A stretch of 64,000 nt of DNA from Elusimicrobiota bacterium (GTDB lineage: Bacteria; Elusimicrobiota; Elusimicrobia; UBA1565; UBA9628), in contig JACRDP010000007.1 of NCBI GenBank assembly GCA_016212855.1, forward strand, positions 1 through 64,000. Direction: 5' to 3'. Shown one piece after another: positions 144 through 60,591 of the stretch; position 1 is the stretch's first letter; every line of letters begins with the position of its first letter. A model generated the notes under the pieces. It ran no database searches. It saw nothing but the letters and a program-made list of their open reading frames with translations, and had not been told where the DNA came from. The position numbers were made by a program, and so were the translations under genes.

Positions 144-173
144 TTGACGGACACGACGGGAAAAAGCCATAAT
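144..173 (+). promoter_or_regulatory. rpsT promoter
   Basis: TTGACG (144-149), an 18-bp spacer and CATAAT (168-173) form a good sigma-70-type promoter. Only 8 nt separate the -10 from the ATG at 182 and no Shine-Dalgarno fits, so the transcript would be leaderless or nearly so. Confidence 0.75.
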
Positions 174-181
174 CTCCGTCT

Positions 182-469
182 ATGGCAAAGAAGAAGCAGA
201 TGCGTCACAAGTCGGGACTCAAGGCTCACCGCCAGTCCCTCAAGCACGCGATCCACAACGCGTCCAAGCGTAAGTCCGTCCGCCTCGCCGTGCGCGCCCT
301 CGTGGACGCCGCGAAGAGCAAGGACGTCAAGGCGATCTTAGAGCTGACCGGCAAGGCCTCCGCCGCGCTCGACAAGGCCGCCAAGGCCGGCACCATCCAC
401 TGGAAGGCCGCCGCCCGCAAGAAGTCCCGCCTGGCCGCCCAGGTCCGAACTCTCACCGCCGCGAAGTAA
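182..469 (+). CDS. rpsT: 30S ribosomal protein S20
   Basis: A 95-residue, strongly basic, all-helical protein beginning MAKKKQMRHKSGLKAHRQS, the length and composition typical of bacterial S20, which binds 16S rRNA early in assembly of the small subunit. The conserved Lys/Arg/Ala-rich pattern, with Ser/Asn positions in the first helix and the Ala-rich C-terminus (AALDKAAKAGTIHWKAAARK), supports the assignment. It is a single-gene unit with its own promoter just upstream and an intrinsic terminator 20 bp downstream. The start codon lies only 8 nt after the -10 box, so translation probably begins at or next to the 5' end of the mRNA. Free-standing rpsT with its own promoter is common in bacteria. 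Confidence 0.95.
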   Translation: MAKKKQMRHKSGLKAHRQSLKHAIHNASKRKSVRLAVRALVDAAKSKDVKAILELTGKASAALDKAAKAGTIHWKAAARKKSRLAAQVRTLTAAK

Positions 470-488
470 GCCGCGAGGCCGACAACGA

Positions 489-520
489 GCGCCCGTCCCC
501 TTCGACGGGCGCTTCGCTTT
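489..520 (+). terminator. rpsT intrinsic terminator
   Basis: GCGCCCGTC (489-497), a 6-nt loop and GACGGGCGC (504-512) make a perfect 9-bp stem, followed by a short T-rich tail (TTCGCTTT). It lies 20 bp after the rpsT stop codon. Confidence 0.85.
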
Positions 521-527
521 AGAGGGG

Positions 528-598
528 GTCAGGCTTCACTATACGAACACTGCCCTCAAATCGGATCCGAGGGAATTGTTCGAATAGTGAAGCCTGAC
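528..598. repeat. 71-bp inverted-repeat element (REP/MITE-like)
   Basis: The left arm (528-549) and the reverse complement of the right arm (577-598) match at 21 of 22 positions (arm begins GTCAGGCTTCACTAT). Inside lies a second stem, CCCTC (553-557) with GAGGG (569-573), around a self-complementary core. It sits between the convergent rpsT and holA genes. The form resembles REP-type elements mobilised by Y1 (RAYT) transposases. It could also stop transcription arriving from holA. Confidence 0.65.
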
Positions 599-604
599 AC
601 CCAC

Positions 605-1618: not shown

Positions 1619-1622
1619 CGCC

Positions 1623-2237
1623 TCAGTACGGGTTGGAGATGACGGGCTTGAGCGGCTCGTCGGGCTTGGCCGCGGGTTGCGTGGAAGGGGCCTCGCCGGT
1701 GATGCGCCTCTCGGAGGTGCCGGTAACCGAGCCGAAGCCGTTGACCACGCGCTTGACGATGTTGCGCGCCAGGATGTCCCAGATCTGCTCGCGCGCCTGC
1801 TCCTCGGTCAGGCCGGCGCGAAGAGTCGCCGCGGGAAAGTTCAGGATGCCCTCGAGGTTCTTCTCCTCCCACAGAATCTGGTTGGAGCTCTTGTCGACGA
1901 ACTGCAGGTCCACGAGGATGCGCAGCTTGTAGGCGGTCGCGGCCTGGGTCGAGTCGTATTGCACGGCGGTCAGGATGTAGCGCGAGATCGTGATCCAGAC
2001 GATGCCCTGAGACTCGGGCTCGGGCACGAGAGGGTATCGGCCGTCGCGCAGGAACTCGTCGCGCACGCGCAGCATGAGCTTGTCCTCGAGGCCGAACTGC
2101 TGGGTCTTGTTGGAGACGGGCCGCAGGGCCAGCCGTTGGACGTGTTGGGGGATGATCTGCGGGGTCGGCTTGTACGCCACGTCGGTGCCGCACGCGGCGG
2201 AGAGAAGCAGCGCGAGGGGAAGAAGTCTCTTGATCAT
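1623..2237 (-). CDS. lptE: LPS-assembly lipoprotein LptE
   Basis: A 204-residue protein with a lipoprotein signal peptide: [11 protein letters not shown] followed by the lipobox LSAAC with Cys16 as the lipidation site. LptE plugs the LptD barrel in the outer membrane during lipopolysaccharide export. The mature part ([19 protein letters not shown]) matches the LptE/RlpB fold, which begins with a strand, then N-x-T/S and a helix. The ATG overlaps the leuS stop by 4 bp and holA follows after 4 nt, the gene order of E. coli. Sequence divergence in this family is high, so position carries much of the weight. Its presence implies a diderm cell with LPS or LOS. Confidence 0.8.
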
Positions 2238-4744
2238 TTGACCACCAGGTTGACCAGCTTTTTCGGGATTAAGATGACCTTCACGATCGTCTGCGTTCCG
2301 ACCGCCGTCTGAATTTTGACCAGCTTGACCGCCGTTTCCTTGACGAGCTCGTCCGGCGCGTCCGCGGCGATTTTAAACGTGTCGCGCAGCTTGCCGTTGA
2401 CCTGCACGGGATACTCCAGGACGCTCTCGATGAGGAATTGGGGGTCCCACGACGGCCACGGCTCGCGACAGAGCAGTTTCTCGTGGCCTAGCTTCTCCCA
2501 TAATTCTTCAGTCAAATGCGGAGCGAACGGATTGAGAAGAATGAGAAACGTATTGAGATCAGTTTTCGACGGCGCCTTATCAGCTTGGATCGCGTTGAGA
2601 TAAATCATCAGCGAAGAAATGGCCGTGTTGAAACCAAATGACTCGATGTCTTCGCCGACCTTTTTAATCGTGCGATGGCGCAATGCGACGAGTCCGTCGC
2701 CTTCGGCGCCGGCGTTGTTGAGATCATTGATGAGAACGAATGCCCTTTTGAGAAACCGATAAACACCTTCGATGCTCCGCATGTCCCACGGCTTTGCCTG
2801 CTCGAACGGGCCCATGAACATCTCGTATAGCCTGAACGCGTCCGCGCCGTAGCGTTTGAGCACGACGTCGGGATTGACGACGTTCTTCTTGGATTTGGAC
2901 ATCTTCTCGACTTGAGAGGTCAGGATCTCGCCGGTCGCGGTCAGCTTCGCCCGGTTCTGGTCGTCATATTCGACGTCCTCGTAGGTGTGATAGTTCCCTT
3001 TCGAGTCGCGGTTCGAGTAGGAGAGAATCATGCCCTGGTGCCTGAGTTTTTGAAAGGGCTCCTTCGTGGAGACGAAGCCGAGGTCGAAGAGAACCTTGTG
3101 CCAGAACCGGGAGTACAGCAGGTGGAGCACCGCGTGCTCGGCGCCGCCGACGTAGCAGTCCACCGGCCCCCAGGCTTTCTCGAGGTCCTTGGACCATGCC
3201 GCGGCTGAATTCTTGGGGTCGATGAAGCGCAGATAATACCAGCAGGAACCGGCCCACTGGGGCATGGTGTTGGTCTCGCGTTTGGCCGGGGCCGCGCACG
3301 CGGGGCACTTGGTGCTGACCCAGTCGGTCGCGTTCGCGAGCGGAGACTCGCCGGTGCCGGTGGGTTTGAAATCGGCGACTTCAGGCAGGCGCAGGGGCAG
3401 CTGGTCCTCGGGGACGGGAACGATGCCGCACTTGGCGCAGTGCACGATCGGAATCGGCTCGCCCCAGTAGCGTTGGCGCGAAAACAGCCAGTCGCGCAGC
3501 TTGTAGTTGACGCGCTTGGTCCCGAGCTTTTTCTCACCGAGCCAGGCGATCATCTTCTTCTTGGCTTCGGACGTCGCGAGCCCGTTGAGAAAATCGGAGT
3601 TGACCGCGACACCGTCTCCGGTGAAAGCCTTGTCGTCTTCGGCCTCGCCTTTGACGACGGTCACGATGGCGATCTGATACTTCGACGCGAATTCGTGGTC
3701 GCGCTCGTCGTGGGCCGGCACCGCCATGATCGCGCCCGTGCCGTAGGAGCCGAGCACGTAATCGGCTATCCAGACCGGGATTTTTTTGCCGTTGACCGGA
3801 TTGATCGCGAACCCGCCGGTGAACACGCCCGACTTCTCTTTCTGCAGCTCGGTGCGCTCGAGGTCGGACTTGTTTTTGGCCGCGTCGACGTAAGCGGCGA
3901 CGGCGGCCTTCTGCGCGGCGGCCGTCAGCTTGGCGACGAGCGCGTGTTCGGGGGCGAGGACCATGTAGGTCGCGCCGAACAAGGTGTCGGGGCGGGTCGT
4001 AAACACCTTGAGCTCGTCTCCGGCCTCGGTCTTGAACGCGACTTCGGCGCCCTCGGAGCGGCCAATCCAGTGCTTCTGCATCGCGAGCGTCGAGTCGGGC
4101 CAGTCGAGTCCGGCCAAGTCGCTTTCGAGCCGGTCGGCGTAAGCGGTGATCTTGAGGACCCACTGGCGCAGGTTCTTGCGCTCGACCTTGGTCCCGCAGC
4201 GCTCGCAGGCGCCGTTGAAGACCTCTTCATTGGCGAGACCGGTCTTGCACGACGGGCAGAAATTGATCGGGGCCGTGCTTTCGTAGGCGAGGCCCTTCTT
4301 GAAAAGCTGGAGGAAGATCCACTGCGTCCACTTATAGTAGCCGGGGTCGGTGGTGTCGACCTCGCGGTCCCAATCGTAGGAGAAGCCCAAAGCCTTGATC
4401 TGGCGGCGGAAGTTCTCGACGTTGTCCTTGGTGACCTTCGCGGGGTGCGTGCCGGTGGCGATGGCGAAGTTCTCGGCGGGCAGGCCGAAGGCGTCCCAGC
4501 CCATCGGGTGCAGGACGTCGAAGTCGCGCATGCGCTTGTAGCGGCACAGGATGTCGGTCGCCGTATAGCCCTCGGGGTGGCCGACGTGAAGGCCCGCGGC
4601 CGAGGGATAGGGGAACATGTCCAGGCAGTAGAATTTTTTCCCCGGGTGCGGTATTTTCGGCGCGCGGAAGGCCCCGTCGGCCTCCCACCGGTCCTGCCAC
4701 TTTTTCTCGATATCCGCGAAGGGGATATGTTCGGTCTTGCTCAC
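2234..4744 (-). CDS. leuS: Leucyl-tRNA synthetase
   Basis: An 836-residue class I aminoacyl-tRNA synthetase that charges tRNA-Leu. The HIGH-type signature is HVGH at residues 53-56 after PYPSAAGL; the KMSKS loop ([14 protein letters not shown]) lies near residue 610. The CP1 editing domain is present ([19 protein letters not shown]; the family's [15 protein letters not shown] motif), as are two zinc-type cysteine pairs (CPSC/CERC and CAKC/CPAC). The length is normal for bacterial LeuRS. The start is GTG. A perfect TATAAT lies 7 nt upstream, so leuS can be transcribed independently of the toxin-antitoxin pair just upstream on the same strand. A stretch around 2450-2700, in the anticodon-binding domain, is noticeably less GC-rich than the rest. 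Confidence 0.97.
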
Positions 4745-4751
4745 GAGGGGG

Positions 4752-4757
4752 ATTATA
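4752..4757 (-). promoter_or_regulatory. -10 box of leuS
   Basis: A perfect TATAAT on the minus strand lies 7 nt before the GTG start, inside the 22-bp gap after the toxin stop codon. No good -35 is visible at 16-18 bp. The distance again predicts a leaderless message. Confidence 0.5.
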
Positions 4758-4766
4758 GCTTTTCGA

Positions 4767-5632: not shown

Positions 5633-5638
5633 TATTAG
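5633..5638 (+). promoter_or_regulatory. -10 box of the histidine kinase gene
   Basis: TATTAG lies exactly 6 nt before the GTG start codon, following the spacing repeated across the window. No convincing -35 is visible. Confidence 0.4.
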
Positions 5639-16119: not shown

Positions 16120-18528
16120 TTAGCGTCGCTTTACGTTCAGCGCGCGGCGCACGCGGGTGAGGATCACGTCCTTGGCGGCGGGCTTGCGGATGTAGTCCGC
16201 GGCTCCGAGTTCCAGGGCCCGGGCTTCGGCATCGGTCTGGGCGCTGAAGAAGATCACGGGCGTGTCGATTCGCTTCTGCGCCTTGAGCTCCATGAGTCTG
16301 AGCCCGTCGAGGTTCGGCATGTTGAGGTCCGAGAGTATGAGATCGAACGGCGCGGCCGAGAGACGGGCGAGGGCCTCGACGCCGTCGCCGGCGACAGTAA
16401 CCGCGTAGCCCTGGCTTTCGAGCACGCGCCGGATCAGCAGGCGCGTGTCCTCGTCGTCTTCAGCGACGAGGATGCGGGGCGCGTTCGGGTCGGCGTCCAT
16501 GATGATCGCGGGCGTGGCGGCGGACTTCGCGGGCTTGGACGCGGCGGCGGGCGCGGGCTCGGCCGGCGGGGCCGCGGCGCTCGTCTTCTGCCGGTACTCG
16601 CGTTCTTCGAGAAGAACGCTTTCATACACGTCCTTCGGGTCGAAGAGCAACGCGCGGACTTTCTCGATCGCGTGGTCGGTGATCAGGATGTCGCCGCGCT
16701 TGCGGGCGAAGTCGCGGATCTCCGAGATCGGCTTGTCGCTGCGGATCATCTCCGAGATTTCGGGATAGAACTTAACGATCTCGTAAACGCCCTCGCGGCC
16801 AAGATAGCCCGTGCCCCCGCACTTCATGCAGCCGGCCGGCCGCGCGACCGTCGCGGGGACGTCATCGGTGAAGGGGGCGAACCACGCCTTCTCCTCGGCC
16901 GTGGCCGGACCGGAGACCTTGCAGTGCGGGCACAGCCGCTTTATTAATTTTTGGGCGATCACGCCCAAAATGCTGTCGGCCATGGCGCCGCGCGTGACGC
17001 CGATGCGCTCGAGGCGGAAGATCGCCGTGGTCGCGTTCGTCGTGTGCACCGAGGAGATCGTCAGGTGGCCGGTGCTCGAGAAGTCGATCGCCATCTTGGC
17101 CGAGAAGGAGTCGCGCATCTCGCCCAGGAAGAGGATGTCGGGGTCCTGGCGCAGGGAGGACTTGAGCAGAGCCTCGAAGGTCAGGCCGGCCTTCTCGTCG
17201 ACCTGCTGCTGATTGGCGCTCGCGATGCGGTATTCCACGGGATCTTCGACGGAAATCAGGCTGCGCGTCTTGCAGTCGATGTGCTGGAGCAGGCTGTAAA
17301 TCGTCGTGGTCTTGCCCGAGCCGGTCGGACCCGCGACGACGACGAGGCCGTGGTTGCGGTGCGCGAAGTCGATCATGTGCTGAACCTGCTGCTTCGACAT
17401 GCCGAGTTCCTCGAGCGCCTTCGCCTTGGCGTAGGGCTCGAGCAGGCGCAGGATCAGGCTCTCGCCCGCGGGCGTGCAGGTCGTGGCCAGGCGCGCGATG
17501 AAGGCGCGGCCGTCGATCTCGAGCTCCATCGAGCCGTCCTGCGGCTTGCGCCGCTCGGCGATGTCGAGCCGACCTTGCGCCTTGAAGCGGGTGATCAGTT
17601 GAAGCCCGGTCTGCGATTTGAGCGCGTACAGCTCGCGCATGTCGCCGTCGATGCGCAGGCGGACGACGGTCCGGTCGTCCTTGGGCTCGATGTGGATGTC
17701 GCTGGCGCGCTCGTACACGGCGGTCTCGAGAATGTTCGCCGCGATCTCCGCGACCGGCATGCTCTCGATGTCGGAGCCGAGCAGGGCCGCCACGCCCTCG
17801 CGATCGGGGCGTTTGAGCAGCAGCAGGATGTTCGCGGGCTCGGTGACCAGAATGCGCGGGAGCGCGCCGCCGCCGTAGCTCGCGAGCAAGGACAGCAGTT
17901 CGGCGTTGTACGGGTCTCCGACGACGAAGGCGGGCCCCTGGGCGTCCGCTACGGCGATGACGCGGTTCGAGCGGCAGAACGTCGCCGGCAGGACGCCGAG
18001 CCGGATCGACTCGGGATTGATGTGAGCGAGATAGGTCAGGCCCGCGGCGGCGGCGGCCTCCTTCGCGGTCGCGTACTGGACGCGCGGCTTCCTGCCCGGC
18101 GCCCAGGCGGCGGCGACGAGGCCTTCCTTTAGGCCGGCCCACTGGGACTTGGTCTTGGCATGTTTCCCGACGGTTTCCAGCAGAATCTTCTTATCCAGAG
18201 GCTTGGTCAGGTGGTCCACGCCGCCGGCCGCGAGGGCCCGGGCCTTGTCCTGCGGGGTCGAGAGCGCCGTCAGGAAGATGACCGGGACCATGGCCAGCTC
18301 CGGGTCGGCCTGAAGCGGCGCGCAGAATTCGTAGCCGGTCGTGCCCGGCATCATCACGTCGGTCAGGATCAAGTCTGGACGGCCCGTCTTAAGCCACGCG
18401 AGGGCCGCGTCGCCGTCCGGAAACGCATGGACGTCGTAGCCGCCGTTGATGAGGATGCGCTCGAGCAGCAGGCGCATGCTCTCGTCGTCCTCGACGGTGA
18501 CGACCACGGGCTTGCGGGGCTCGCTCAC
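16120..18528 (-). CDS. REC-GspE/PilB ATPase-REC fusion protein
   Basis: An 802-residue protein built as receiver, secretion-motor ATPase, receiver. REC1 (about 1-120) keeps the acidic pair (EDDES), phosphoacceptor Asp (LILTDVMMP), Thr and Lys (LTKPLD). The middle is a GspE/PilB-type ATPase: N2-domain-like DIHIEPKDDRTVVRLRIDG, Walker A GPTGSGKTTT near 397-405, Asp box (EDPVEYR), Walker B (DPDILFLGEMRD), His box (GHLTISSVHTTN), and a four-Cys zinc motif CPHC/CMKC near 533-568. REC2 (about 683-800) again has an intact pocket and Asp (LILSDLNMP). Such ATPases power type IV pilus extension or type II secretion. It overlaps the REC-Hpt gene by 4 bp. No pilus genes are near, so the target machine is unknown. 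Confidence 0.9.
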   Translation of the reverse strand: MSEPRKPVVVTVEDDESMRLLLERILINGGYDVHAFPDGDAALAWLKTGRPDLILTDVMMPGTTGYEFCAPLQADPELAMVPVIFLTALSTPQDKARALAAGGVDHLTKPLDKKILLETVGKHAKTKSQWAGLKEGLVAAAWAPGRKPRVQYATAKEAAAAAGLTYLAHINPESIRLGVLPATFCRSNRVIAVADAQGPAFVVGDPYNAELLSLLASYGGGALPRILVTEPANILLLLKRPDREGVAALLGSDIESMPVAEIAANILETAVYERASDIHIEPKDDRTVVRLRIDGDMRELYALKSQTGLQLITRFKAQGRLDIAERRKPQDGSMELEIDGRAFIARLATTCTPAGESLILRLLEPYAKAKALEELGMSKQQVQHMIDFAHRNHGLVVVAGPTGSGKTTTIYSLLQHIDCKTRSLISVEDPVEYRIASANQQQVDEKAGLTFEALLKSSLRQDPDILFLGEMRDSFSAKMAIDFSSTGHLTISSVHTTNATTAIFRLERIGVTRGAMADSILGVIAQKLIKRLCPHCKVSGPATAEEKAWFAPFTDDVPATVARPAGCMKCGGTGYLGREGVYEIVKFYPEISEMIRSDKPISEIRDFARKRGDILITDHAIEKVRALLFDPKDVYESVLLEEREYRQKTSAAAPPAEPAPAAASKPAKSAATPAIIMDADPNAPRILVAEDDEDTRLLIRRVLESQGYAVTVAGDGVEALARLSAAPFDLILSDLNMPNLDGLRLMELKAQKRIDTPVIFFSAQTDAEARALELGAADYIRKPAAKDVILTRVRRALNVKRR

Positions 18529-23406: not shown

Positions 23407-23412
23407 GGTGTA
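23407..23412 (-). promoter_or_regulatory. -10 box, 6 nt before the start at 23400
   Basis: TACACC on the minus strand, with GTTATT between it and the ATG. There is no Shine-Dalgarno and no clear -35. It fits the leaderless pattern of the window. Confidence 0.45.
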
Positions 23413-23933: not shown

Positions 23934-23939
23934 AGTGTA
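23934..23939 (-). promoter_or_regulatory. -10 box, 6 nt before the start at 23927
   Basis: TACACT on the minus strand, then CAAATT, then ATG. No Shine-Dalgarno and no clear -35. The 110-bp gap beyond it to the reductase stop (23940-24051) shows no gene or convincing terminator. Confidence 0.5.
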
Positions 23940-34386: not shown

Positions 34387-34392
34387 ATAGTA
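34387..34392 (-). promoter_or_regulatory. -10 box, 6 nt before the ftsH-like start
   Basis: TACTAT on the minus strand, then GGGGGC, then ATG. It predicts a leaderless message for the long operon downstream. No clear -35. The rest of the 123-bp gap to 34503 shows no gene. Confidence 0.45.
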
Positions 34393-36202: not shown

Positions 36203-36231
36203 ATTCTACAACACTCACGCGGTGGGGCCAA
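36203..36231 (-). promoter_or_regulatory. Promoter of the tandem regulator pair
   Basis: Minus strand TTGGCC (36226-36231), a 17-bp spacer and TAGAAT (36203-36208), then 6 nt (TCGCGC) to the ATG. Both boxes and the spacer are good, making this one of the better-supported leaderless promoters. Confidence 0.7.
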
Positions 36232-38125: not shown

Positions 38126-38773
38126 CTAGAGGCCGGATGGCGGCAGCCCGAGCCGGATGACTTCGTCGAAAAGTTCGCGCTCTTTCGGATTCCTGGCCAT
38201 GCTCCAGGAGCCGGCCTTATTCTGGCGATGGATCGCGTCGTAGTCGATGACGAGTCGGCGCTTCTGGTCCATGGCGTCGCGGCGAAGGGACTCGAAGGCC
38301 TTCAACGCCCGCTCGGCGTCAGCCCAGCCGCGGGGATCGTCGTTGAGGTCCAGCGTGGCGAGATGGGCGTCCATGTAAAGGATTTCGATCGCCTTGTTGA
38401 CGTAGACGCCGCCGTCGTCCCGGCCCGAGCCGTTCTTAATCAGCTTGAAGCTGATAGGACGCGCCTCGTAGTCGGACACCATCGCAGGCATGGGGCGCCC
38501 TTGGTGCTTGACCTTGTACGCCGGCGTCGAGGCTGAGTCGAGCAAGCGGACGCACCAATCCTGAGGCGGCCTCGGGCGCTCATAATTCGATCCGGAGATT
38601 TGCGCCTGCCAGCAATCCCGCTGCTCGGGAGCGGCCGCCCGCTCCGCCGCCGCGGCGGCCCTGAGGGCTTCCGTCCGGGCGAGAATATCGCGCACGGCGG
38701 GCATCTCGGCGCCGAATTCCTGTGCACCGGCTGAAGTCGAGACGAACATTGCGATCAGGAGCAGGTTTTTCAT
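38126..38773 (-). CDS. Exported protein of unknown function with QEFGAEM N-terminus
   Basis: A 215-residue protein with a signal peptide (MKNLLLIAMFVSTSAGA) followed by QEFGAEMPAVRDILARTEAL, a motif shared with two other exported proteins in this window (starts at 22847 and 27988). Two cysteines (DCWQAQ, DWCVRL) could form a disulphide. The C-terminal half is helical and charged (RALKAFESLRRDAMDQKRRL). No enzyme motif is visible. It heads a three-gene unit of exported proteins and has a -10 box 6 nt before the ATG. Confidence 0.7.
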   Translation of the reverse strand: MKNLLLIAMFVSTSAGAQEFGAEMPAVRDILARTEALRAAAAAERAAAPEQRDCWQAQISGSNYERPRPPQDWCVRLLDSASTPAYKVKHQGRPMPAMVSDYEARPISFKLIKNGSGRDDGGVYVNKAIEILYMDAHLATLDLNDDPRGWADAERALKAFESLRRDAMDQKRRLVIDYDAIHRQNKAGSWSMARNPKERELFDEVIRLGLPPSGL

Positions 38774-38779: not shown

Positions 38780-38785
38780 AGTGTA
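38780..38785 (-). promoter_or_regulatory. -10 box, 6 nt before the start at 38773
   Basis: TACACT on the minus strand, then GAAAGC, then ATG. No Shine-Dalgarno. The remaining gap to 38884 holds short palindromes only (GGTTCACC; GTCGC/GCGAC) and no clear terminator. Confidence 0.5.
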
Positions 38786-43192: not shown

Positions 43193-43198
43193 AGTATA
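43193..43198 (-). promoter_or_regulatory. -10 box, 5 nt before the start at 43187
   Basis: TATACT on the minus strand, then GTGGC and ATG. In the rest of the gap (43199-43331) GGGGTT/AACCCC (43281-43298) forms a small hairpin without a T tract, and TGAGCGA/TCGCTCA flanks about 43305-43335. Neither is a clear terminator. Confidence 0.5.
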
Positions 43199-47332: not shown

Positions 47333-47338
47333 TTCCAG

Positions 47339-47344
47339 AGGCTA
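47339..47344 (-). promoter_or_regulatory. -10 box, 6 nt before the start at 47332
   Basis: TAGCCT on the minus strand, then CTGGAA and ATG. It lies in a 36-bp divergent gap which must also hold the promoter of the plus-strand gene at 47369. Confidence 0.35.
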
Positions 47345-47368
47345 TCATATTTTTTTGTAGGCTTGAGC

Positions 47369-53792: not shown

Positions 53793-53795
53793 GGG

Positions 53796-53824
53796 TTGAT
53801 TCTACCAACTCAGGGGGCTATACT
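53796..53824 (+). promoter_or_regulatory. Divergent promoter region, with leaderless starts on both sides
   Basis: Plus strand: TTGATT (53796-53801), a 17-bp spacer, TATACT (53819-53824), then 6 nt to the ATG at 53831. Minus strand: TAGAAT (53799-53804), then 6 nt to the ATG at 53792. The plus -35 and the minus -10 overlap, so the two promoters should exclude each other. Confidence 0.7.
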
Positions 53825-53830
53825 AAGTCC

Positions 53831-54196
53831 ATGATCTTGAGACGATTCGTCCTCGCCCTGCTGACCCTCTCCTTCGCCGTCCCCGCCGCCCTCGTCCGCG
53901 CCCAGACGGAAATCGCGAGCGACGAGGACAAGCCCGCGCCCAAGACCAAGAAAAAGACTCCCGCCAAGAAGAAGGGCTTCGATTACGAGCGCTCCAAGTA
54001 CAAGTCGAAGGAGCCGTCGCAGACGACGAACTACAAGTTCAACGAGAAGGGCGAGCCGATCAGCGGCGAGAAGAAGAAGGCGCCCGCCAAGAAGAAGAAG
54101 CGCTCCGAGCCTCCTGAGGAGGATCCGCTCAAGCCCGAGGGCTGCGGCTCCGAAGACAACTGCGCCGAGAAGAAGTCCGAGGCCGACGCGCTCTAG
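53831..54196 (+). CDS. Lysine-rich exported protein
   Basis: A 121-residue protein with a signal peptide (FVLALLTLSFAVPAALVRAQ). The mature part is low-complexity and highly charged (KPAPKTKKKTPAKKKGFDYE, KKKAPAKKKKRSEPPEEDP), with a Cys pair near the end (GCGSEDNC). It is probably disordered, perhaps binding LPS, DNA or wall polymers. The promoter with a good -35/-10 gives a leaderless start. Its TAG stop is read from the same CTAG palindrome as the stop of the convergent kinase gene. Confidence 0.7.
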   Translation: MILRRFVLALLTLSFAVPAALVRAQTEIASDEDKPAPKTKKKTPAKKKGFDYERSKYKSKEPSQTTNYKFNEKGEPISGEKKKAPAKKKKRSEPPEEDPLKPEGCGSEDNCAEKKSEADAL

Positions 54197-55749
54197 GCGG
54201 ACGTGCCGTTCGGAAGGCGCGCGACGAAACGCGCGCCTTTTCCGGGCTCGCTCTCCGCGCGGATAGTCCCGCGGTGGGCGTCGACGATTCCCTTGCAGAT
54301 GGCCAGGCCGAGGCCCGTTCCCGGCGTCTTGCGCGTGATCGCGTCGCCCGCCCGGTAGAACTTCTCGAATAGGCGGGGCAGGTCGGCCTTCGCGATGCCG
54401 GGTCCTTCGTCGGCGACGCTGAGCTCGAGATTCGTCCCGGCCCTGATTGCTGATAGAGCCACGCGCCCGCCCTCGGGCGTGTACTTGAGCGCGTTGCCCA
54501 CGAGGTTTACGAACAGGCGATAGAGCTGCTCTTCGTCGCCGTGAATGGTCTCGGCGCCAGGCGAGATGGAGAGGACAAAGCGCGGCTTGGACTTGTGCTC
54601 CTTGAAAAGCCGCTCGACGCGGTCGAACAGCGCGGCGGTCTTCACCGTGACGAGGTTCGTCTCGATCCCGCCGCTTTCGATGCGCGCGATGTCGAGGAAG
54701 TCGTTGACCATGTGGCCGAGCCGGGTCGCTTCGTCGAGAATGATCTGGAGGTAGTGCCCGCGCTTGCTCGTGTCGAGCTCGTCGCCGAAGTCGCGTAAGG
54801 TCTCTGCGAAGCCGCGGATGGCGGTCAGCGGCGTGCGCAGCTCGTGGCTGACGAGCGCGGTGAACTCGGACTTCATGCGCTCGATCTGCTTGCGCTTGGT
54901 GATGTCCCGGTAGGAGCGCACGATCGCGAAAGCCTCGCCGGAGTCGTCTTTGAGCAAGGTGAACGTGCCTTCGATCGCGACCAAAGACCCGTCCTTGCGC
55001 ACGCGCTCGGTTTCGACTCCGTTCTTGAACCCCTTGGCGTGAACTTCGGCGATCACGTCGCGGATCTGCTCGACGCGCTCCGGCGGCACCAGGAACGCGC
55101 CGTGGCGTCCGAGGACCTCGTCGAGGCGCCATTGTAGGAGGTCTTCCGCGCCGGCGTTCCAGGTGAGGATCTTCTCGTGGAGATCGGTCACGAAGATCGC
55201 GTCCGCGGACTGATCGACGATCGCGGCGGAGATCTTCTGATGCTGGAGCGTCTGCTGGATCATACGCGCGTTGCGCAGATGCCGCGCGATCTCGACGAGC
55301 CCGCCCTCGCGCTCCGAATCCAAGGGCTCGGCCTTGACCCGGCCGAAGACGACGCCTCCGGTGACGATCGCGACCTCCGCGGTCAGGCGCAGCAGCGGCG
55401 CGGCCTCCCAGGACCGCAAGCCGTCCGTGGCCGTGACGATTTTGCGTTCGCCGAGGGCGCGCGTCAAAAGTTCGCGCTCCGTGGCGTGGGACGGCTCTCC
55501 GGCGAGGCGCTTGTCGGCGTGGCGATAGAAGGACACGGGCCGGCCGAGCTCGTCGGCGAAAAAGACCTCGACGGATTGGGCGCCCATCAGCGCCATCGCC
55601 GCGTGGCAGGCCTCGGGCAGGGCCGCGGCGAAGGGCTTGTCGCCGAACAAGGCGACGGACATCCGGTTGAGAAGCACCAGGCGCTGGTAGCGCTGGGTCA
55701 TCAAATCCCGAGGGAGAACGGCGGGATCGGCTTGCGGGGAATCGCCCAT
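54193..55749 (-). CDS. Soluble sensor histidine kinase (GAF-like, PAS, HisKA, HATPase)
   Basis: A 518-residue kinase without membrane helices. N-terminal residues 30-170 look like a GAF domain (AALPEACHAAMALMGAQSVE, FADELGRPVSFYRHAD). A PAS domain follows (IVDQSADAIFVTDLHEKILT with PAC region GTFTLLKDDSGEAFAIVRSY), then HisKA (TALVSHELRTPLTAIRGFAE) and HATPase ([44 protein letters not shown]). This is the common PhoR/ResE-like core. No response regulator is adjacent. TAGAAT lies 8 nt before the start; the divergent gene at 55784 shares this gap. Confidence 0.93.
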   Translation of the reverse strand: MGDSPQADPAVLPRDLMTQRYQRLVLLNRMSVALFGDKPFAAALPEACHAAMALMGAQSVEVFFADELGRPVSFYRHADKRLAGEPSHATERELLTRALGERKIVTATDGLRSWEAAPLLRLTAEVAIVTGGVVFGRVKAEPLDSEREGGLVEIARHLRNARMIQQTLQHQKISAAIVDQSADAIFVTDLHEKILTWNAGAEDLLQWRLDEVLGRHGAFLVPPERVEQIRDVIAEVHAKGFKNGVETERVRKDGSLVAIEGTFTLLKDDSGEAFAIVRSYRDITKRKQIERMKSEFTALVSHELRTPLTAIRGFAETLRDFGDELDTSKRGHYLQIILDEATRLGHMVNDFLDIARIESGGIETNLVTVKTAALFDRVERLFKEHKSKPRFVLSISPGAETIHGDEEQLYRLFVNLVGNALKYTPEGGRVALSAIRAGTNLELSVADEGPGIAKADLPRLFEKFYRAGDAITRKTPGTGLGLAICKGIVDAHRGTIRAESEPGKGARFVARLPNGTSA

Positions 55750-55757: not shown

Positions 55758-55763
55758 ATTCTA
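55758..55763 (-). promoter_or_regulatory. -10 box, 8 nt before the kinase start at 55749
   Basis: TAGAAT on the minus strand. The same AT-rich block holds TATATT (55762-55767) on the plus strand, a candidate -10 for the divergent small membrane protein at 55784. Confidence 0.45.
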
Positions 55764-55984: not shown

Positions 55985-56809
55985 TTACTGGAAGAACAAC
56001 AGCTCGACGCCGAACTTGTACTCGGCGTCGTCGACCGGGACGAACTTCTCCCCGATGATCTTCTTGCCCTGCTCGACGAGGAAGGCCTTGCGTTTCTCGA
56101 GCCGCAGGGCCAGATCCTCCCGCGTCTTCGCGATCAGGCCCACGTAGCCGAGTTCGGGGCCCACGTAGACGAGCAGCCCATGCTCGCCGTTCTGAGCGAC
56201 GCGCACGCCCGAGGCCGCGATCAGCCCCGCGTCGATGTCGTCGCCGGGCTTGAGCACGCGCAGCAGGGTCTCGTGCGCGGGCGCGTTCTCGGCCTTGGCG
56301 AGATAGAGGATCGAGTAGGTCGGCAGGAGGAACTCGAGGTTTAAGACCCGCACGGAGACCGGCGTCAGGCCGGCGATCACGAGCTCGGTCCGGATCTTCG
56401 CCATGTTCGCGCGCAGACCGGCGTCGTCCTTCGGGGGGAACTGCCGGGGCTCGGCCATGAAGGCCCGGATCACGCGCCCGTCGGACGTGTGGTAAGGCAG
56501 GCGGAACATGCCGTCCTTCAAGACGGGAGTTCCGGGCTGCACGCCCGCGTTGCGCAGAATCTCGGACCAGTACGCGGTCGCCTCGGCGAACTGCTCGGGG
56601 GTGTCGGCGTAGCCGTACAGCGTGTCCTTGCCCGCCTGGATGTGCATGTGGCTCTTGTCGATGACGTCGGCGGGACGCGAGGGGGGGGCGGCCGGCGCCG
56701 GAACCTCGACGGCCAGCTGGGCCGGGACGACGAAATTGAACGCGGGCAGGAGCTCGGCGGAGGCGGCGAGCGGCGACAGCAGGAGCGCGGCGAGAGAGAG
56801 TGTCTTCAT
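55985..56809 (-). CDS. Exported protein of unknown function
   Basis: A 274-residue protein with a signal peptide (MKTLSLAALLLSPLAASAEL), a Pro/Ala linker and a mixed alpha/beta mature part (TPEQFAEATAYWSEILRNAG, RVLNLEFLLPTYSILYLAKA, LLVYVGPELGYVGLIAKTRE). There are no cysteines and no enzyme motif I recognise. It is a single-gene unit with TAGAAT 6 nt before the ATG, divergent from the ferritin-like gene. Confidence 0.65.
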   Translation of the reverse strand: MKTLSLAALLLSPLAASAELLPAFNFVVPAQLAVEVPAPAAPPSRPADVIDKSHMHIQAGKDTLYGYADTPEQFAEATAYWSEILRNAGVQPGTPVLKDGMFRLPYHTSDGRVIRAFMAEPRQFPPKDDAGLRANMAKIRTELVIAGLTPVSVRVLNLEFLLPTYSILYLAKAENAPAHETLLRVLKPGDDIDAGLIAASGVRVAQNGEHGLLVYVGPELGYVGLIAKTREDLALRLEKRKAFLVEQGKKIIGEKFVPVDDAEYKFGVELLFFQ

Positions 56810-56815: not shown

Positions 56816-56821
56816 ATTCTA
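56816..56821 (-). promoter_or_regulatory. -10 box, 6 nt before the start at 56809
   Basis: TAGAAT on the minus strand, then CGCGCC and ATG. No clear -35. Confidence 0.5.
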
Positions 56822-56880: not shown

Positions 56881-56886
56881 TATCAT
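56881..56886 (+). promoter_or_regulatory. -10 box, 6 nt before the start at 56893
   Basis: TATCAT, then GGAGGC and ATG. The GGAGG is too close to the ATG to act as a Shine-Dalgarno, so the -10 reading is preferred. Confidence 0.45.
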
Positions 56887-56892: not shown

Positions 56893-57393
56893 ATGGACTG
56901 GTCTCCCTTCGTCGTCTGCCCTCCCGAGGAACGTGCGCCGTCCGCGCGCGGCATGGGCGGCCCCGACGGCCTCGGCGACCGCCTGCGCACCGCGGCCTTC
57001 GCGGAGCGCCAGGCGTTCGCGGCGTTCATGTGGGCGGCGGAGAATATCCCCGACGCCTCGAACGAGCTGCGCGACGTCTGGCGCCGCATCGGGCTCGAAG
57101 AGAAGAAGCATCTCGACATGCTCCTGGGCCGTATGAAAGAACTCTCTGTTGAGGTCGCCGCGCGGCCTGTCTCCGACCGCCTTTGGCGCGGCTTGAGTTC
57201 CTGCGTGACCGTGGCAGAATTCTCCGCGCTGATGCGCGAGGCGGAGGCTCGCGGGCAGGCCGCGGAAGAGACCTTCCGACGCGCCCTCGCCGACCGCGAC
57301 CCAGTCACGGCGGCCATTTTCGGCTCGATCGCCGACGACGAGGCTGAACACCTCGCCTTGGCCGACCGGTTGTCGGTCCACCGCGCACCTTAA
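56893..57393 (+). CDS. Ferritin-like diiron protein
   Basis: A 166-residue helical protein with the spaced Glu/His pattern of a ferritin-like four-helix bundle: AFAERQAFAAFMWAAENI (helix 1 Glu), LEEKKHLDMLLGRM (E-x-x-H on helix 2), MREAEARGQAAEETFRRALA (helix 3) and DDEAEHLALADRL (E-x-x-H on helix 4). Such proteins handle iron or reactive oxygen or act as oxidases. It resembles rubrerythrin/DUF455-type bundles but lacks a rubredoxin domain. The start rests on the -10 box 6 nt upstream; a TTG start 6 codons earlier is possible. An AT-rich palindrome follows the gene. Confidence 0.7.
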   Translation: MDWSPFVVCPPEERAPSARGMGGPDGLGDRLRTAAFAERQAFAAFMWAAENIPDASNELRDVWRRIGLEEKKHLDMLLGRMKELSVEVAARPVSDRLWRGLSSCVTVAEFSALMREAEARGQAAEETFRRALADRDPVTAAIFGSIADDEAEHLALADRLSVHRAP

Positions 57394-57571: not shown

Positions 57572-57577
57572 TAAACT
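57572..57577 (+). promoter_or_regulatory. -10 box, 6 nt before the start at 57584
   Basis: TAAACT, then GATGCT and ATG. No clear -35. Confidence 0.35.
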
Positions 57578-57583
57578 GATGCT

Positions 57584-58777
57584 ATGAGGCGTCTCGCCGC
57601 CGTCCTTTTCCCCCTCGCTTTCGCCACCTTAGCTCCCGCCGCGGTCGTCGAGCGCGTGTCTCCGGTCGTCGACGTCGCCATCGGCTCCCCGTTACCGGTC
57701 CTTTCGCCCGCCGTCGCTCCCTCGTTGTCCGCGAGCTTCGCGCCCGCGCTCCTGCCCTCGCTGCCTTCTCCTGCTCTCTCTCTTAAACCCGTCGCGACGC
57801 CCGTCGCCGTCGTCGCCGCCCTCCCGCTCACCGCTTCCGCCGCCCTGCCTCGCGAGCGCGGCCCGCCGACCGCGCGCGATGCGGAGTACGGCGCGGCCGT
57901 CGCGCACGGCGTCGCGGCGAAGGCTCAGGATTGGGGCGTACCCTCCGCCGAGATTCTCGAGAATCACGATGCGATCTTGGTCGGCGAGAGCCATCACAGC
58001 CTCGCCTCGGTCGGCGAACTCGCGAAGGCTCTGCCCGGCCTCGCCGCGGCGGGCGTGAAGGTCCTGGGCATCGAGGGCCTCAAGCGCCCGAGCCAGGACG
58101 CCGTGGACGCCTATCTCGCGCGCCGCGCCGCTTTGCCGCCGGAGGTTCTCGCCTTCTCGCCTCGCCGCCGCGCGGCGTTCGAGGGGCTGTTCGAAGCCGC
58201 GCGCGAAGCGGGCGTACGCATCATCGCTCTCGGCGTGCCCCTCGATGCGTGGGCGAAGCAGACGGCCGAGCTCGCCGCGGCCAAGACCGGCGACCCGATG
58301 GAGAGCTTCCTCGCGGCTCCGGGCGAGCAGCTGTACCGCGCGCAAACGAGCTACGAGCCCGGCTACAACGAGGCCGTCGCCGAGGTTTACGTCGCTCGCC
58401 GCAACGCGAGCATGGCCGCCTTCCTCGTCGAATCGATGGTCCGCGGAGCGAAGGCCGTCGTGCTCGTGGGCCAAAATCACGTGGAGGGCGCCGACGACAT
58501 TCCCTCCTCTTTGATGCGCGCGCCGGGAAATTGGGGCAGCATGGGCCGGGAGCTCGCCCGTTGGGGCCTCAAGGCTTTTTCGCTGACGCTCACCGGCGGC
58601 CTGTACGTCGACGCGGACGGAGCGGCCGACGACCGCGCCGCGCGCCCGGCGGCCTACGCGGCGGCCGCGAAGGCCGCGCCGGACGGCGGACGCGCCTTTA
58701 AACGGTCAGGGCCCGACAAAGGTCTATATCATGCCGGCGGCACCGTGCCCTCCGGGTCTTTCCGCGCGCGCCGATAA
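57584..58777 (+). CDS. Exported ChaN/TraB-like protein
   Basis: A 397-residue protein with a signal peptide (MRRLAAVLFPLAFATLAPAA), about 70 residues of Ala/Pro/Ser low-complexity sequence, then a domain with the ChaN/TraB-Tiki superfamily pattern: AILVGESHHSLASVGELAKA, then GVKVLGIEGLKRP, then VYVARRNASMAAFLVESMV and VVLVGQNHVEG. The first G-E-x-H plus downstream Glu, the R-N-x-x-M segment and the final G-x-N-H are the conserved metal/active-site features of that group, which includes haem-binding lipoproteins and membrane-associated metalloproteases. Which activity it has is open. Confidence 0.7.
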   Translation: MRRLAAVLFPLAFATLAPAAVVERVSPVVDVAIGSPLPVLSPAVAPSLSASFAPALLPSLPSPALSLKPVATPVAVVAALPLTASAALPRERGPPTARDAEYGAAVAHGVAAKAQDWGVPSAEILENHDAILVGESHHSLASVGELAKALPGLAAAGVKVLGIEGLKRPSQDAVDAYLARRAALPPEVLAFSPRRRAAFEGLFEAAREAGVRIIALGVPLDAWAKQTAELAAAKTGDPMESFLAAPGEQLYRAQTSYEPGYNEAVAEVYVARRNASMAAFLVESMVRGAKAVVLVGQNHVEGADDIPSSLMRAPGNWGSMGRELARWGLKAFSLTLTGGLYVDADGAADDRAARPAAYAAAAKAAPDGGRAFKRSGPDKGLYHAGGTVPSGSFRARR

Positions 58778-58782
58778 TTCGC

Positions 58783-58788
58783 TATCCT
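58783..58788 (+). promoter_or_regulatory. -10 box, 6 nt before the pta start
   Basis: TATCCT, then CGGCGC and ATG. The same hexamer, with CGG as the first three spacer bases, occurs before the gene at 59974. Confidence 0.45.
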
Positions 58789-58794
58789 CGGCGC

Positions 58795-59820
58795 ATGACC
58801 ACCTTGACCAAGAACCGCGACATCGTCGGCGACATCCGGCGCAAGGCCGCCGCGCTGAAAAAGCGCATCGTGCTTCCGGAGGGGGACGAGAAGCGCACGC
58901 TCAAAGCCGCGGCTATATTAAAAGTAAATGGTCTATGTGTACCGGTTCTGGTGGGAAATGCCGATTCCGTCAAGAAAAATGCCGTTGCCAACGGCGTTGA
59001 CCTTGCCGGCATCGAGGTCGTGGATCCTTCGACCGATGCCAAAACTCAGGAGTATGTTTCCCAATACTACGAGTTGCGTAAACACAAAGGCATCTCCGAG
59101 GACGACGCGAAGAAATCGGTGCTTGACCCGATGGTGTTCGCGGTCATGATGCTCCACAACGACCGCGTCGACGGCTTCCTGTCGGGCGCCGACCACGCGA
59201 CCGCCGACACCGTGCGCCCCGCGCTTCACATCATCAAGCCCGCGCCCGGCGTGCGTACGATCTCCTCCTTCTTCATCATGATCTTCCCCAAGCCCGAGTT
59301 GGGCGACGACGGCGTGCTCATCATGGGCGACTGCGCGATCAACATCGACCCGGTGCCCGTGAAGCTCGCCGCGATCGGCATCTCCTCGGCGCGCATGGCG
59401 AAGGTCCTGTGCGGCATCGAGCCGCGCATCGCCTTCCTATCCTTCTCCACGAACGGCTCGACCGAGCACGAGCTCGTCAACGCGGTCAAAGAAGCCGTCC
59501 GCGTCGCGAAAGAGAAGGCGCCCGATCTCGCCATCGACGGCGAGATGCAGGCCGACGCCGCGCTCGTCCCCGAGATCGGCCAGAAGAAATTCCCCGGTTC
59601 CAAAGTCGCCGGCCGCGCCAACGTCCTGGTCTTCCCCGATCTCCAGAGCGGGAACATCGGCTACAAATTGGTGCAAAGGCTGACGGGAGCTGAAGCGCTC
59701 GGTCCGATCATGCAGGGCTTCGCCAAGCCCGTCAACGACCTCTCCCGCGGCGCTTCCGTCGACGACATCGTCAACATGGCCTGCGTGACCGCTCTTCAGT
59801 CCGACCCGTCATTGCGCTAG
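58795..59820 (+). CDS. pta: Phosphate acetyltransferase
   Basis: A 341-residue enzyme of the compact PTA_PTB type, interconverting acetyl-CoA plus phosphate and acetyl phosphate plus CoA. Family segments include RIVLPEGDEKRTLKAAAIL, VDGFLSGADHATADTVRPAL, GVRTISSFFIM, DCAINIDPVPVKLAAIGISS, ARMAKVLCGIEPRIAFLSFS, DGEMQADAALVPEIGQKKFP and the C-terminal GASVDDIVNMACVTALQ. No N-terminal regulatory domain is present. Together with a Hyf-type hydrogenase a little downstream it suggests fermentation with acetate and ATP formation. The acetate kinase gene is not in view. Codons in about 58905-59075 are markedly less GC-rich than the rest of the gene. Confidence 0.95.
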   Translation: MTTLTKNRDIVGDIRRKAAALKKRIVLPEGDEKRTLKAAAILKVNGLCVPVLVGNADSVKKNAVANGVDLAGIEVVDPSTDAKTQEYVSQYYELRKHKGISEDDAKKSVLDPMVFAVMMLHNDRVDGFLSGADHATADTVRPALHIIKPAPGVRTISSFFIMIFPKPELGDDGVLIMGDCAINIDPVPVKLAAIGISSARMAKVLCGIEPRIAFLSFSTNGSTEHELVNAVKEAVRVAKEKAPDLAIDGEMQADAALVPEIGQKKFPGSKVAGRANVLVFPDLQSGNIGYKLVQRLTGAEALGPIMQGFAKPVNDLSRGASVDDIVNMACVTALQSDPSLR

Positions 59821-59900
59821 AACTGCCGTTTGCTGTGTTCGAGGCCGGCGCGGGAGACGATTTTATCTCAAGATAAACGCGGGTGAGAAAAGTTCCATCA

Positions 59901-59919
59901 ACCTGCCAAAGTGGCAGGT
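59901..59919. promoter_or_regulatory. 19-bp inverted repeat upstream of the promoter at 59939
   Basis: ACCTGCCA, AAG, TGGCAGGT: perfect 8-bp arms ending 19 bp before a -35 box. On the plus strand an A-run rather than a T-run follows, so an operator fits better than a terminator for pta. A second small inverted repeat, TTTATCT-CA-AGATAAA, lies at 59862-59877. Confidence 0.45.
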
Positions 59920-59938
59920 AAAAAATGAGGCGAGCCCC

Positions 59939-59967
59939 TTGTAATTTCGCGACTCACGGGCTATCCT
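59939..59967 (+). promoter_or_regulatory. Promoter of the gene at 59974
   Basis: TTGTAA (59939-59944), a 17-bp spacer and TATCCT (59962-59967), then exactly 6 nt to the ATG. It is among the best examples of the leaderless layout. Confidence 0.7.
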
Positions 59968-59973
59968 CGGAAC

Positions 59974-60591
59974 ATGGCCAAAACCCCTCGGCTTCTCCTG
60001 CTTTTGACGTTCGCCCTCGCGCCGCGCGCCGCCCTCGCGCAGAAAGAGTTCTCCGACTGCCGCATGGGACACGTCGTCCTGCTCCTGCCGGGCGAGAAGC
60101 CTCCGAAGGGCCCCGGCTGCGGCGGCGTGACCGCGACGATCGATCTCGCCGTCGCGTCCGCGCTCGCCGACAGGGCGGCCGCGATGGCGGCTGAGAACGC
60201 GAAAAAGCTCGCCGAACCGGAGGCCTCCGCCATTGGCGCGATCTCGAGCCCTTACGCGAACGAGGTTCTCACCGAGGACGCGACCGTCGCGAAGCGCGTC
60301 GGCGAGAAGGAACTCGTCTGGCAGACGGTGCACGACAAGCTGGTCGCGGCCAAGACCGAGGTGAAAAAGCTCAGTGAAGAAGACGAGGAGCCCTCCGGTG
60401 AGCGCGTCAAGGAACTCAACGCCCTGGCGACCCGTATCGCGGCTGGCGCCGCGATTCTAAAAGACATCGCCGCCGACAAGGCCCGCTTCAAGGCCTTCAT
60501 GGCGCTCGATAAGAAGGCCGAGACGGACGCGGCCGTCCTCAAGCGTAAAGCCGCGCTCTTCGCGAAGATCGCGCCCCCGAAGAAAGCTTAG
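59974..60591 (+). CDS. Exported helical protein of unknown function
   Basis: A 205-residue protein with a signal peptide (MAKTPRLLLLLTFALAPRAA, cleavage near ALA), two cysteines (DCRMGH, GPGCGG) around a short hydrophobic strand, and a long charged helical remainder with coiled-coil character (KLVAAKTEVKKLSEEDEEP, TDAAVLKRKAALFAKIAPPK). No family is recognised. It is a single-gene unit with its own leaderless-type promoter. Confidence 0.65.
   Translation: MAKTPRLLLLLTFALAPRAALAQKEFSDCRMGHVVLLLPGEKPPKGPGCGGVTATIDLAVASALADRAAAMAAENAKKLAEPEASAIGAISSPYANEVLTEDATVAKRVGEKELVWQTVHDKLVAAKTEVKKLSEEDEEPSGERVKELNALATRIAAGAAILKDIAADKARFKAFMALDKKAETDAAVLKRKAALFAKIAPPKKA

What the first reader, a model, noticed from the sequence alone, without database searches (positions are those of the whole stretch)
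168..59976. Window-wide leaderless start architecture: TAnnnT, 6 nt, start codon
At 14 genes a -10-like TAnnnT hexamer ends exactly 6 nt before the start codon. Starts: 5645 (TATTAG), 23400 (TACACC), 23927 (TACACT), 34380 (TACTAT), 36196 (TAGAAT), 38773 (TACACT), 47332 (TAGCCT), 53792 (TAGAAT), 53831 (TATACT), 56809 (TAGAAT), 56893 (TATCAT), 57584 (TAAACT), 58795 (TATCCT), 59974 (TATCCT). Four more have 5-8 nt (43187, 4744, 182, 55749). Several also have a -35 at 17-18 bp (182, 36196, 53831, 59974). With initiation normally about 7 nt after the -10, the first transcribed base is the A or G of the start codon. Genes inside operons use 4-bp overlaps or a Shine-Dalgarno (22847, 36811, 38109). So this genome seems to use leaderless mRNAs for operon heads, including the S20, Pta and FtsH-like genes. 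Leaderless genes are known in Actinobacteria and Deinococcus; for this lineage I know of no description.
Basis: partly seen in the sequence, partly recalled or inferred. Interest (0 to 1): 0.75.

Follow-up and report, generated by a model that had tools for sequence, protein, structure and literature searches.

The report
Leaderless genes in an Elusimicrobiota bacterium
In this uncultured bacterium many genes carry their promoter directly against the start codon, so the messenger RNA very probably begins at the start codon with no leader; this style is known from several other bacterial groups and here appears in a new lineage, sometimes with two back-to-back genes sharing about 25 bases of control DNA.

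Summary
The window lies in an Elusimicrobiota MAG. With starts chosen without the motif, TAnnnT ends exactly 6 nt before the start codon in 46 of 229 putative operon heads in 798 kb (32% of the genome); background 3.2 per position (Poisson P 2e-36). Outside the window: 38 of 206. Unselected features appear in register: TTG at -35 (17-bp spacer), G at -14, C at -1. Shine-Dalgarno is nearly missing there but peaks in operon-internal genes. De novo search finds tGcTAtAaT at gap 6, and AGGAGG in Bacillota. Orthologous pta, rpsT, leuS and two divergent pairs keep the arrangement. The excess falls from genus to class and is absent in the phylum genomes sampled outside the class.

Best reading: sigma-70 promoters whose start site is the start codon, giving leaderless mRNAs for about 30% of heads and 14% of genes. 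A known kind (Zheng 2011; Zhong 2025), not found in print for this phylum in the library searched. Possibly new corollary: divergent leaderless genes 23-25 bp apart sharing a two-way -10. No 5' ends were mapped.

The parts
168..173 (+). -10 (CATAAT) of rpsT, gap 8 to ATG at 182; -35 TTGACG at 144-149, spacer 18
   Evidence: TTGAC[GC]-17/18-NNTAAT kept in 27 of 30 rpsT loci (own included); S20
4752..4757 (-). -10 TATAAT of leuS, gap 7 to GTG at 4744
   Evidence: TATAAT at gap 6-9 in the 6 relatives read; LeuRS
23934..23939 (-). -10 TACACT, gap 6 to ATG at 23927
34387..34392 (-). -10 TACTAT, gap 6 to ATG at 34380 of the AAA/M41 (FtsH-like) gene; start uncertain
   Evidence: caller preferred 34083
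36203..36208 (-). -10 TAGAAT, gap 6 to ATG at 36196; -35-like TTGGCC, spacer 17
38780..38785 (-). -10 TACACT, gap 6 to ATG at 38773
43193..43198 (-). -10 TATACT, gap 5 to ATG at 43187
47339..47344 (-). -10 TAGCCT, gap 6 to ATG at 47332 (FG-GAP protein), one half of a 36-bp divergent intergenic region
47358..47363 (+). -10 TAGGCT, gap 5 to ATG at 47369, other half of the 36-bp divergent intergenic region
53799..53804 (-). -10 TAGAAT, gap 6 to ATG at 53792 (hybrid histidine kinase), one half of a 38-bp divergent intergenic region
53819..53824 (+). -10 TATACT, gap 6 to ATG at 53831; -35-like TTGATT, spacer 17, overlapping the opposite promoter
55758..55763 (-). -10 TAGAAT, gap 8 to ATG at 55749 (histidine kinase); start uncertain, caller preferred 55701
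56816..56821 (-). -10 TAGAAT, gap 6 to ATG at 56809
56881..56886 (+). -10 TATCAT, gap 6 to ATG at 56893 (rubrerythrin/DUF455-like)
   Evidence: caller used 56893 and 56953
57572..57577 (+). -10 TAAACT, gap 6 to ATG at 57584 (ChaN-like haem-binding)
58783..58788 (+). -10 TATCCT, gap 6 to ATG at 58795 (Pta)
   Evidence: TA...T kept at gap 6 in 11 of 12 relatives and gap 7 in 1
59962..59967 (+). -10 TATCCT, gap 6 to ATG at 59974; -35-like TTGTAA, spacer 17
5633..5638 (+).
23407..23412 (-).

Best explanation
These are housekeeping (sigma-70 type) promoters, often with an extended -10, placed so that the transcription start is the first base of the start codon or lies within about 1-3 nt of it. The mRNA therefore has essentially no 5' UTR and no Shine-Dalgarno sequence, and would be translated as a leaderless mRNA (70S ribosome on a 5'-terminal AUG or GUG, as known elsewhere). 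Genes inside operons use Shine-Dalgarno or tight stop-start coupling instead. About 30% of putative operon heads and about 14% of all sampled genes carry the signal. Shown here by sequence: the promoter motif, its exact position, near-absence of SD at those genes, and conservation. Inferred: the actual 5' ends and the mode of ribosome loading.
For: Exact peak at gap 6 (46 of 229 heads; gaps 5/7/8: 8/20/7; background 3.23 per position) with starts called without the motif; internal ATG control flat (11 of 3771 at gap 6), operon-internal tight genes 7 of 368. Outside the window alone: 56 of 620 genes, P 6e-42. Unselected features in the 66 gap-6 genes: TTG starting at -35 in 16, at most 2 at any other position from -50 to -17; G at -14 in 44 (P 4e-10); C at -1 in 42 (P 1e-8). 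Start codons of the 79 heads with gap 5-8 are ATG 64, GTG 15, TTG 0, against TTG 10 of 150 other heads, as purine initiation would give (one relative's leuS does start with TTG). SD-like 4-mers in 2 of 46 gap-6 heads, against a strong -12 to -9 peak in tight genes (40 at -12, background 4.35). De novo motif tGcTAtAaT at gap 6. 0 of 46 gap-6 heads has a downstream in-frame start with SD within 19 codons (7 of 150 other heads; too few to be decisive). Conservation: pta TAnnnT at gap 6 in 11 of 12 relatives with the inner bases varying; rpsT promoter in 27 of 30 loci; leuS in own plus 6 of 6 relatives at gap 6-9, read by eye. Divergent pairs with start codons 23-25 bp apart leave little room for two leaders. 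RpoD is encoded (cut by a contig end).
Against: No RNA data. 150 of 229 heads lack TAnnnT at gap 5-8. For rpsT the conserved hexamer sits at gap 7-9 in 25 of 30 loci, so its 5' UTR may be 1-3 nt, not zero. Gap 6 is also seen in 13 of 79 genes lying 21-60 nt behind a same-strand gene and 7 of 368 tight genes. Coding signal in codons 2-9 of 59 gap-6 genes is weaker (0.22) than in tight genes (0.35), so some starts may lie further downstream. Start calls come from my own simple caller. The same pipeline found 13% excess on a D. radiodurans plasmid, a known leaderless organism, and the de novo search did not find a -10 there, so percentages are rough.
Confidence: 0.93

Rival explanations
1. The hexamers are real -10 elements, but the called start codons are wrong: transcription starts there and translation begins at a later in-frame codon behind a short leader.
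For: Start calls are computational; codons 2-9 of gap-6 genes have a lower coding score (0.22) than codons 10-17 (0.39); the FtsH-like gene has a competing start at 34083.
Against: 0 of 46 gap-6 heads have a downstream in-frame start with SD within 19 codons, against 7 of 150 other heads and 14 of 368 tight genes (not significant alone). In-frame sequence upstream of the start scores negative. S20 matches its family model from residue 8 at model position 3 and begins MAKKK or similar in relatives. Orthologous pta starts keep the 6-nt spacing in 11 of 12 relatives.
Confidence: 0.05
2. The T/A-rich hexamer is a translational signal (S1 binding or an unstructured start region), not a promoter.
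For: AT-rich or U-rich start regions occur in non-SD genes of several phyla and S1 binding is discussed there (PMC5397173, passages).
Against: Sharp one-position peak, TTG exactly 17 bp upstream, G at -14 and C at -1; concentrated in heads (46 of 229) and rare in tight genes (7 of 368).
Confidence: 0.02
3. Chance or composition artefact of a GC-rich genome, or reader selection.
Against: P 6e-42 outside the window, flat internal-ATG control, no gap-6 excess in Bacillota (1 against 8.1) or E. coli (1 against 0.8).
Confidence: 0.001

Closest known systems
TA-led (leaderless) genes of bacteria, Zheng et al. 2011 (PMC3160421; passages read)
   Same: TANNNT about 12 bp upstream of the start; in high-GC genomes the inner three bases carry little information; group averages such as 13% of genes (Acidobacteria), 19% (Actinobacteria), 39% (Deinococcus-Thermus)
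   Different: 'Elusimicrob' occurs 0 times in its main text; the within-phylum gradient and the compact divergent pairs are from this work
-10-motif adjacent to ORFs in Deinococcus-Thermus, Zhong et al. 2025 (PMC12340547; passages read)
   Same: TANNNT a few bp before the ORF, a -35 raises transcription, shown by experiment to drive leaderless genes
   Different: Other phylum ('Elusimicrob' 0 times); here no experiment; here the hexamer is often preceded by G at -14
Bidirectional promoters of E. coli and Salmonella (PMC12825309, PMC10268837; passages read)
   Same: Pseudo-symmetric -10 with divergent start sites most often 18 bp apart, 10 and 23 bp also common; inferred distances of 23 and 18 bp occur here
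   Different: Here the inferred start sites lie at the start codons of two leaderless genes, so the whole intergenic region is 19-25 bp; 'leaderless' occurs 0 times in both papers

Membership tests
Bacterial leaderless (TA-led) genes | TANNNT-like -10 about 10-12 bp upstream of the start, above background expectation | tested here: met
   46 of 229 heads at gap 6, background 3.23; de novo motif
Bacterial leaderless (TA-led) genes | No Shine-Dalgarno at these genes | tested here: met
   2 of 46 gap-6 heads with an SD-like 4-mer in -18 to -5; tight genes peak at -12
Bacterial leaderless (TA-led) genes | Mapped mRNA 5' end at or within a few nt of the start codon | not testable with these tools
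   no RNA data on hand
Bacterial leaderless (TA-led) genes | Translation from the 5'-terminal start codon | not testable with these tools
   needs N-terminal peptides, ribosome profiling or a reporter
Sigma-70 promoters | -35 TTG about 17 bp before the -10, in register | tested here: met
   TTG at -35 in 16 of 66 gap-6 genes, 0-2 at other positions from -50 to -17
Sigma-70 promoters | A housekeeping sigma factor in the genome | tested here: inconclusive
   RpoD C-terminal model, 306.7 bits, E 1e-91, under the 354-bit cut-off; the match ends 2 bases from the contig end (contig length)
Loss of SD translation (anti-SD lost) | 16S 3' end lacks CCUCC | tested here: not met
   27 SSU loci of relatives searched with one pattern: 18 matched and all 18 carry CCTCC; the full-length L094 and the partial loci other than L104 did not match the pattern; own 16S absent from the MAG
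Bidirectional promoters | Divergent -10 elements with start sites 10, 18 or 23 bp apart | tested here: met
   Of 23 compact pairs computed, inferred 23 bp in two own pairs and one pair each of G021, G048 and G089; 18 bp in G040 and as one of two options in G157; G024 gave none; the other 15 give 25-75 bp
Bidirectional promoters | Transcription in both directions shown | not testable with these tools
   no RNA data

The most novel reading that the evidence does not exclude
Leaderless starts allow a minimal two-way gene switch: two divergent leaderless genes whose start codons lie only about 19-25 bp apart and share one pseudo-symmetric -10 (often the same TA step), so a single RNA polymerase site chooses between two complete genes with no leader or other control DNA between them. 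In this genome dihydrouridine synthase / 2-hydroxyacid dehydrogenase (25 bp) and FAH / a CxxC protein (23 bp) are such pairs; most relatives read keep both -10s with longer spacers.
Probability: 0.45. Interest if true: 0.6.

Novelty: new member of a known kind. Interest (0 to 1): 0.42.

Why it matters
It would add the Elusimicrobia lineage of Elusimicrobiota to the bacteria that use leaderless mRNAs widely, with a gradient inside one phylum (excess at gaps 5-8: 30% of heads in this genome, 21% genus, 11% family, 10% order, 5% class, none outside the class, small samples) that makes gain or loss of the habit traceable among relatives that keep an intact anti-SD where it could be read. It also helps annotation: starts in these MAGs can be set by the -10 as well as by SD. 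The compact divergent pairs give a clean test of how RNA polymerase chooses direction when promoter and start codon coincide.

Tried and rejected
Rejected: chance or composition; a purely translational motif; loss of the anti-SD. bS21 absence as a correlate: 111 of 119 phylum genomes have it; its absence in G000 is not informative in a 72.7% complete MAG. Rfam (gathering cut-off) and tRNA scans of the window found nothing. The de novo motif search on D. radiodurans MP1 (70 heads), G157 (95) and E. coli (42) did not return a -10, and in own tight genes it returned a periodic cgAGan rather than a clean SD, so that method needs large, well-started samples. The signal was weak or absent in some relatives: G040 2 at gap 6 (P 0.13); G089 13 at gap 6 but no excess over gaps 5-8; G079 none. 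Lineage percentages rest on small samples: 61, 67, 87, 243 and 192 heads from 3, 8, 5, 9 and 15 genomes. Genes with caller score 8 or less, with less than 60 nt upstream, or with no neighbour in the stretch were dropped before counting. In the Dus/dehydrogenase pair, 14 relatives were fetched: 9 scored by script (8 with both -10s at gap 5-9, G024 with one only), 2 (G016, G011) read by eye as having both, 3 (G026, G032, G165) not scorable because the Dus start does not align.
Full report
What the window is. The window is contig C2, bases 1-64000, of a 2.5-Mb MAG in 30 contigs, 72.7% complete. Leucyl-tRNA synthetase (2234-4744) has its best named relative, 83% identical, in 'Elusimicrobia bacterium isolate nzgw214'; the next four rows (L002-L005) are Elusimicrobium, Elusimicrobiales, Elusimicrobia and Elusimicrobiaceae at 62-63%, and two more Elusimicrobia rows (L023, L055) have 64 and 60%; the other rows, the closest at 60% or in short pieces, carry other labels (80 loci kept). 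So the lineage is Elusimicrobiota, high GC (66%).

I read the upstream DNA of every start named. Twelve of the 14 'exactly 6 nt' cases hold strictly; 5645 (TATTAG) and 23400 (TACACC) are not TAnnnT. The 5-8 nt cases hold, but for rpsT (182) the conserved hexamer in relatives is CATAAT at gap 8. The SD cases 22847, 36811 and 38109 have AGGAG. The functional names S20, Pta and FtsH-like (AAA plus peptidase M41) are right. The FtsH-like start at 34380 and the histidine kinase start at 55749 are not what my caller chose (34083, 55701).

Genome-wide test. I wrote a gene caller that picks starts by codon usage, start-codon type and overlap with neighbours, without any upstream motif. I applied it to 41 stretches of the genome, 798 kb, window included. 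After dropping low-scoring genes and those too close to a stretch end, 676 genes remain, 229 of them putative heads (divergent neighbour, or more than 60 nt to the same-strand neighbour). Counting the gap between TAnnnT and the start codon in heads gives 8, 46, 20 and 7 at gaps 5, 6, 7 and 8, against a mean of 3.23 per position at gaps 10-39 (P for gap 6 2e-36). Genes 21-60 nt behind a same-strand gene have 13 of 79 at gap 6; tight operon-internal genes 7 of 368. At 3771 internal ATGs it holds 11, like its neighbours. Outside the window alone it is 56 of 620 genes, P 6e-42. The excess at gaps 5-8 is 68 for 229 heads (30%) and 97 for 676 genes (14.3%).

What the element is. The 66 genes with gap 6 were chosen on T, A and T only. 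Other positions then show a promoter: TTG starting at -35 in 16 of 66 (0-2 at other positions from -50 to -17; 8 at -16, which is part of the extended -10), hence a 17-bp spacer; G at -14 in 44; A at -9 in 38; C at -1 in 42. Six bases between -10 and start codon put the usual start site on the A or G of the codon, with C before it as initiators prefer (general knowledge of sigma-70 promoters). Of 79 heads with gap 5-8 none starts with TTG, against 10 of 150 other heads. A motif search without any prior found TAtAaT (6 wide) and tGcTAtAaT (within 30 wide) with gap 6 on top; the same program found AGGAGG in 26 Bacillota loci and GGAG in a phylum genome outside the class (G079).

Two modes. SD-like 4-mers peak at -12 to -9 in the 368 tight genes (40 at -12, background 4.35) and moderately at -11 in the 150 other heads (15, background 2.1), but hardly occur in gap-6 heads (2 at -11). 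Of 27 SSU loci from relatives, 18 matched my 3'-end pattern and all 18 keep CCTCC; one full-length locus (L094) did not match the pattern and was not read further. So SD initiation persists inside operons, while a large minority of operon heads appear leaderless.

Conservation. pta: in 12 relatives TA...T is kept at gap 6 (11) or 7 (1) while the inner bases change. rpsT: TTGAC[GC], 17 or 18 bp, NNTAAT is found in 27 of 30 loci (own included), the -10 ending 6-9 nt before ATG in 26 of these and 12 nt in one (loci were cut for 30 of 55 matching genomes). leuS: TATAAT at gap 6-9 before GTG or TTG in the own genome and in all 6 relatives fetched, read by eye (38 of 38 family genomes have a match).

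Spread. With the same pipeline the excess over gaps 5-8 is 21% of 61 heads in the genus, 11% of 67 in the family, 10% of 87 in the order, 5% of 243 in the class, none (-3%) of 192 in phylum genomes outside the class, and none (-8%) of 290 in Bacillota. On a D. radiodurans plasmid it is 13% of 70 (gap-6 P 1e-5), and in 100 kb of E. coli 4% of 42 (gap-6 P 0.55). The samples are small, but they fit a trait of the class that is strongest near this genome.

Divergent pairs. In the own sample 12 of 57 divergent pairs have 0-59 bp between start codons, and all 12 have at least one TAnnnT at gap 5-9, 5 of them on both sides. The same length class holds 3 of 16 pairs in the genus, 3 of 14 in the family, 3 of 19 in the order and 7 of 49 in the class; Bacillota 1 of 47 (without a nearby TAnnnT); E. 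coli 0 of 11; phylum outside the class 0 of 15; D. radiodurans plasmid 2 of 13, one with both -10s. Two own pairs are extreme: dihydrouridine synthase (PF01207) / 2-hydroxyacid dehydrogenase (PF00389, PF02826), 25 bp, and FAH hydrolase (PF01557) / a 114-aa CxxC protein without Pfam match, 23 bp. The inferred start sites are 23 bp apart in both, one of the spacings reported for bidirectional promoters (18 most common, 10 and 23 also; PMC12825309, passages). From the match coordinates the first pair lies within about 130 bp in 14 of the relatives searched (my arithmetic), and both -10s near both starts are found in 8 of 9 relatives scored by script. The second keeps both in 4 of 4 relatives where the genes lie 34-43 bp apart; in several others about 1.3 kb lies between them. 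Only a minority of the compact pairs have the 18 or 23 bp geometry; most have two separate promoters with start sites 25-75 bp apart.

Known or new. Leaderless genes with TANNNT about 12 bp before the start were predicted in 207 of 953 bacterial genomes (PMC3160421, passages) and tested by experiment in Deinococcus (PMC12340547, passages). In the library searched, two papers hold both 'leaderless' and 'Elusimicrobi'. One of them (PMC10783764, passages read) lists the anti-SD type of Elusimicrobia, and the passages seen do not call it leaderless; the other is on a mycobacterial chaperone (listing only). A search for Elusimicrobi with transcription start site and promoter gave three papers on other subjects by title (listing only). 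Wider searches were capped lists: 20 of 52, 25 of 536, 15 of 129, 15 of 68 and 12 of 15 shown; no title among those shown names leaderless genes in this phylum. One paper, on an archaeon by its title, holds leaderless, bidirectional promoters and divergent transcription together (listing only). So the finding is a new lineage for a known kind, with a possibly new minimal two-gene arrangement. Most subscription papers and bioRxiv preprints are not in the library.

Noticed in passing
L116:19125-19147 and L203:3172-3196 (own genome); window 47333-47368 and 53793-53830: Very short divergent intergenic regions (23, 25, 36 and 38 bp) with a -10 facing each way; in the first two the -10s share the TA step
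   Followed up: partly
window 144-173 (rpsT) and 4752-4763 (leuS): Both promoters have an AAAAGC stretch directly before the -10 (AAAAAGC-CATAAT and AAAAGC-TATAAT); it recurs in 5 of the 6 relatives' leuS promoters and many rpsT promoters
   Followed up: no
window 16120-18528: 802-aa protein with receiver domains at both ends around a GspE/PilB-type secretion ATPase
   Followed up: no
L293, L294, L295 (genus g9): The dihydrouridine synthase side of the conserved divergent pair has no start at the aligned place; a different N-terminus or start is used
   Followed up: no
G003:C40, G015:C4 and G020:C16 (match coordinates): The dihydrouridine synthase / dehydrogenase pair is separated by about 0.8, 0.8 and 2.1 kb in these three relatives
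   Followed up: no
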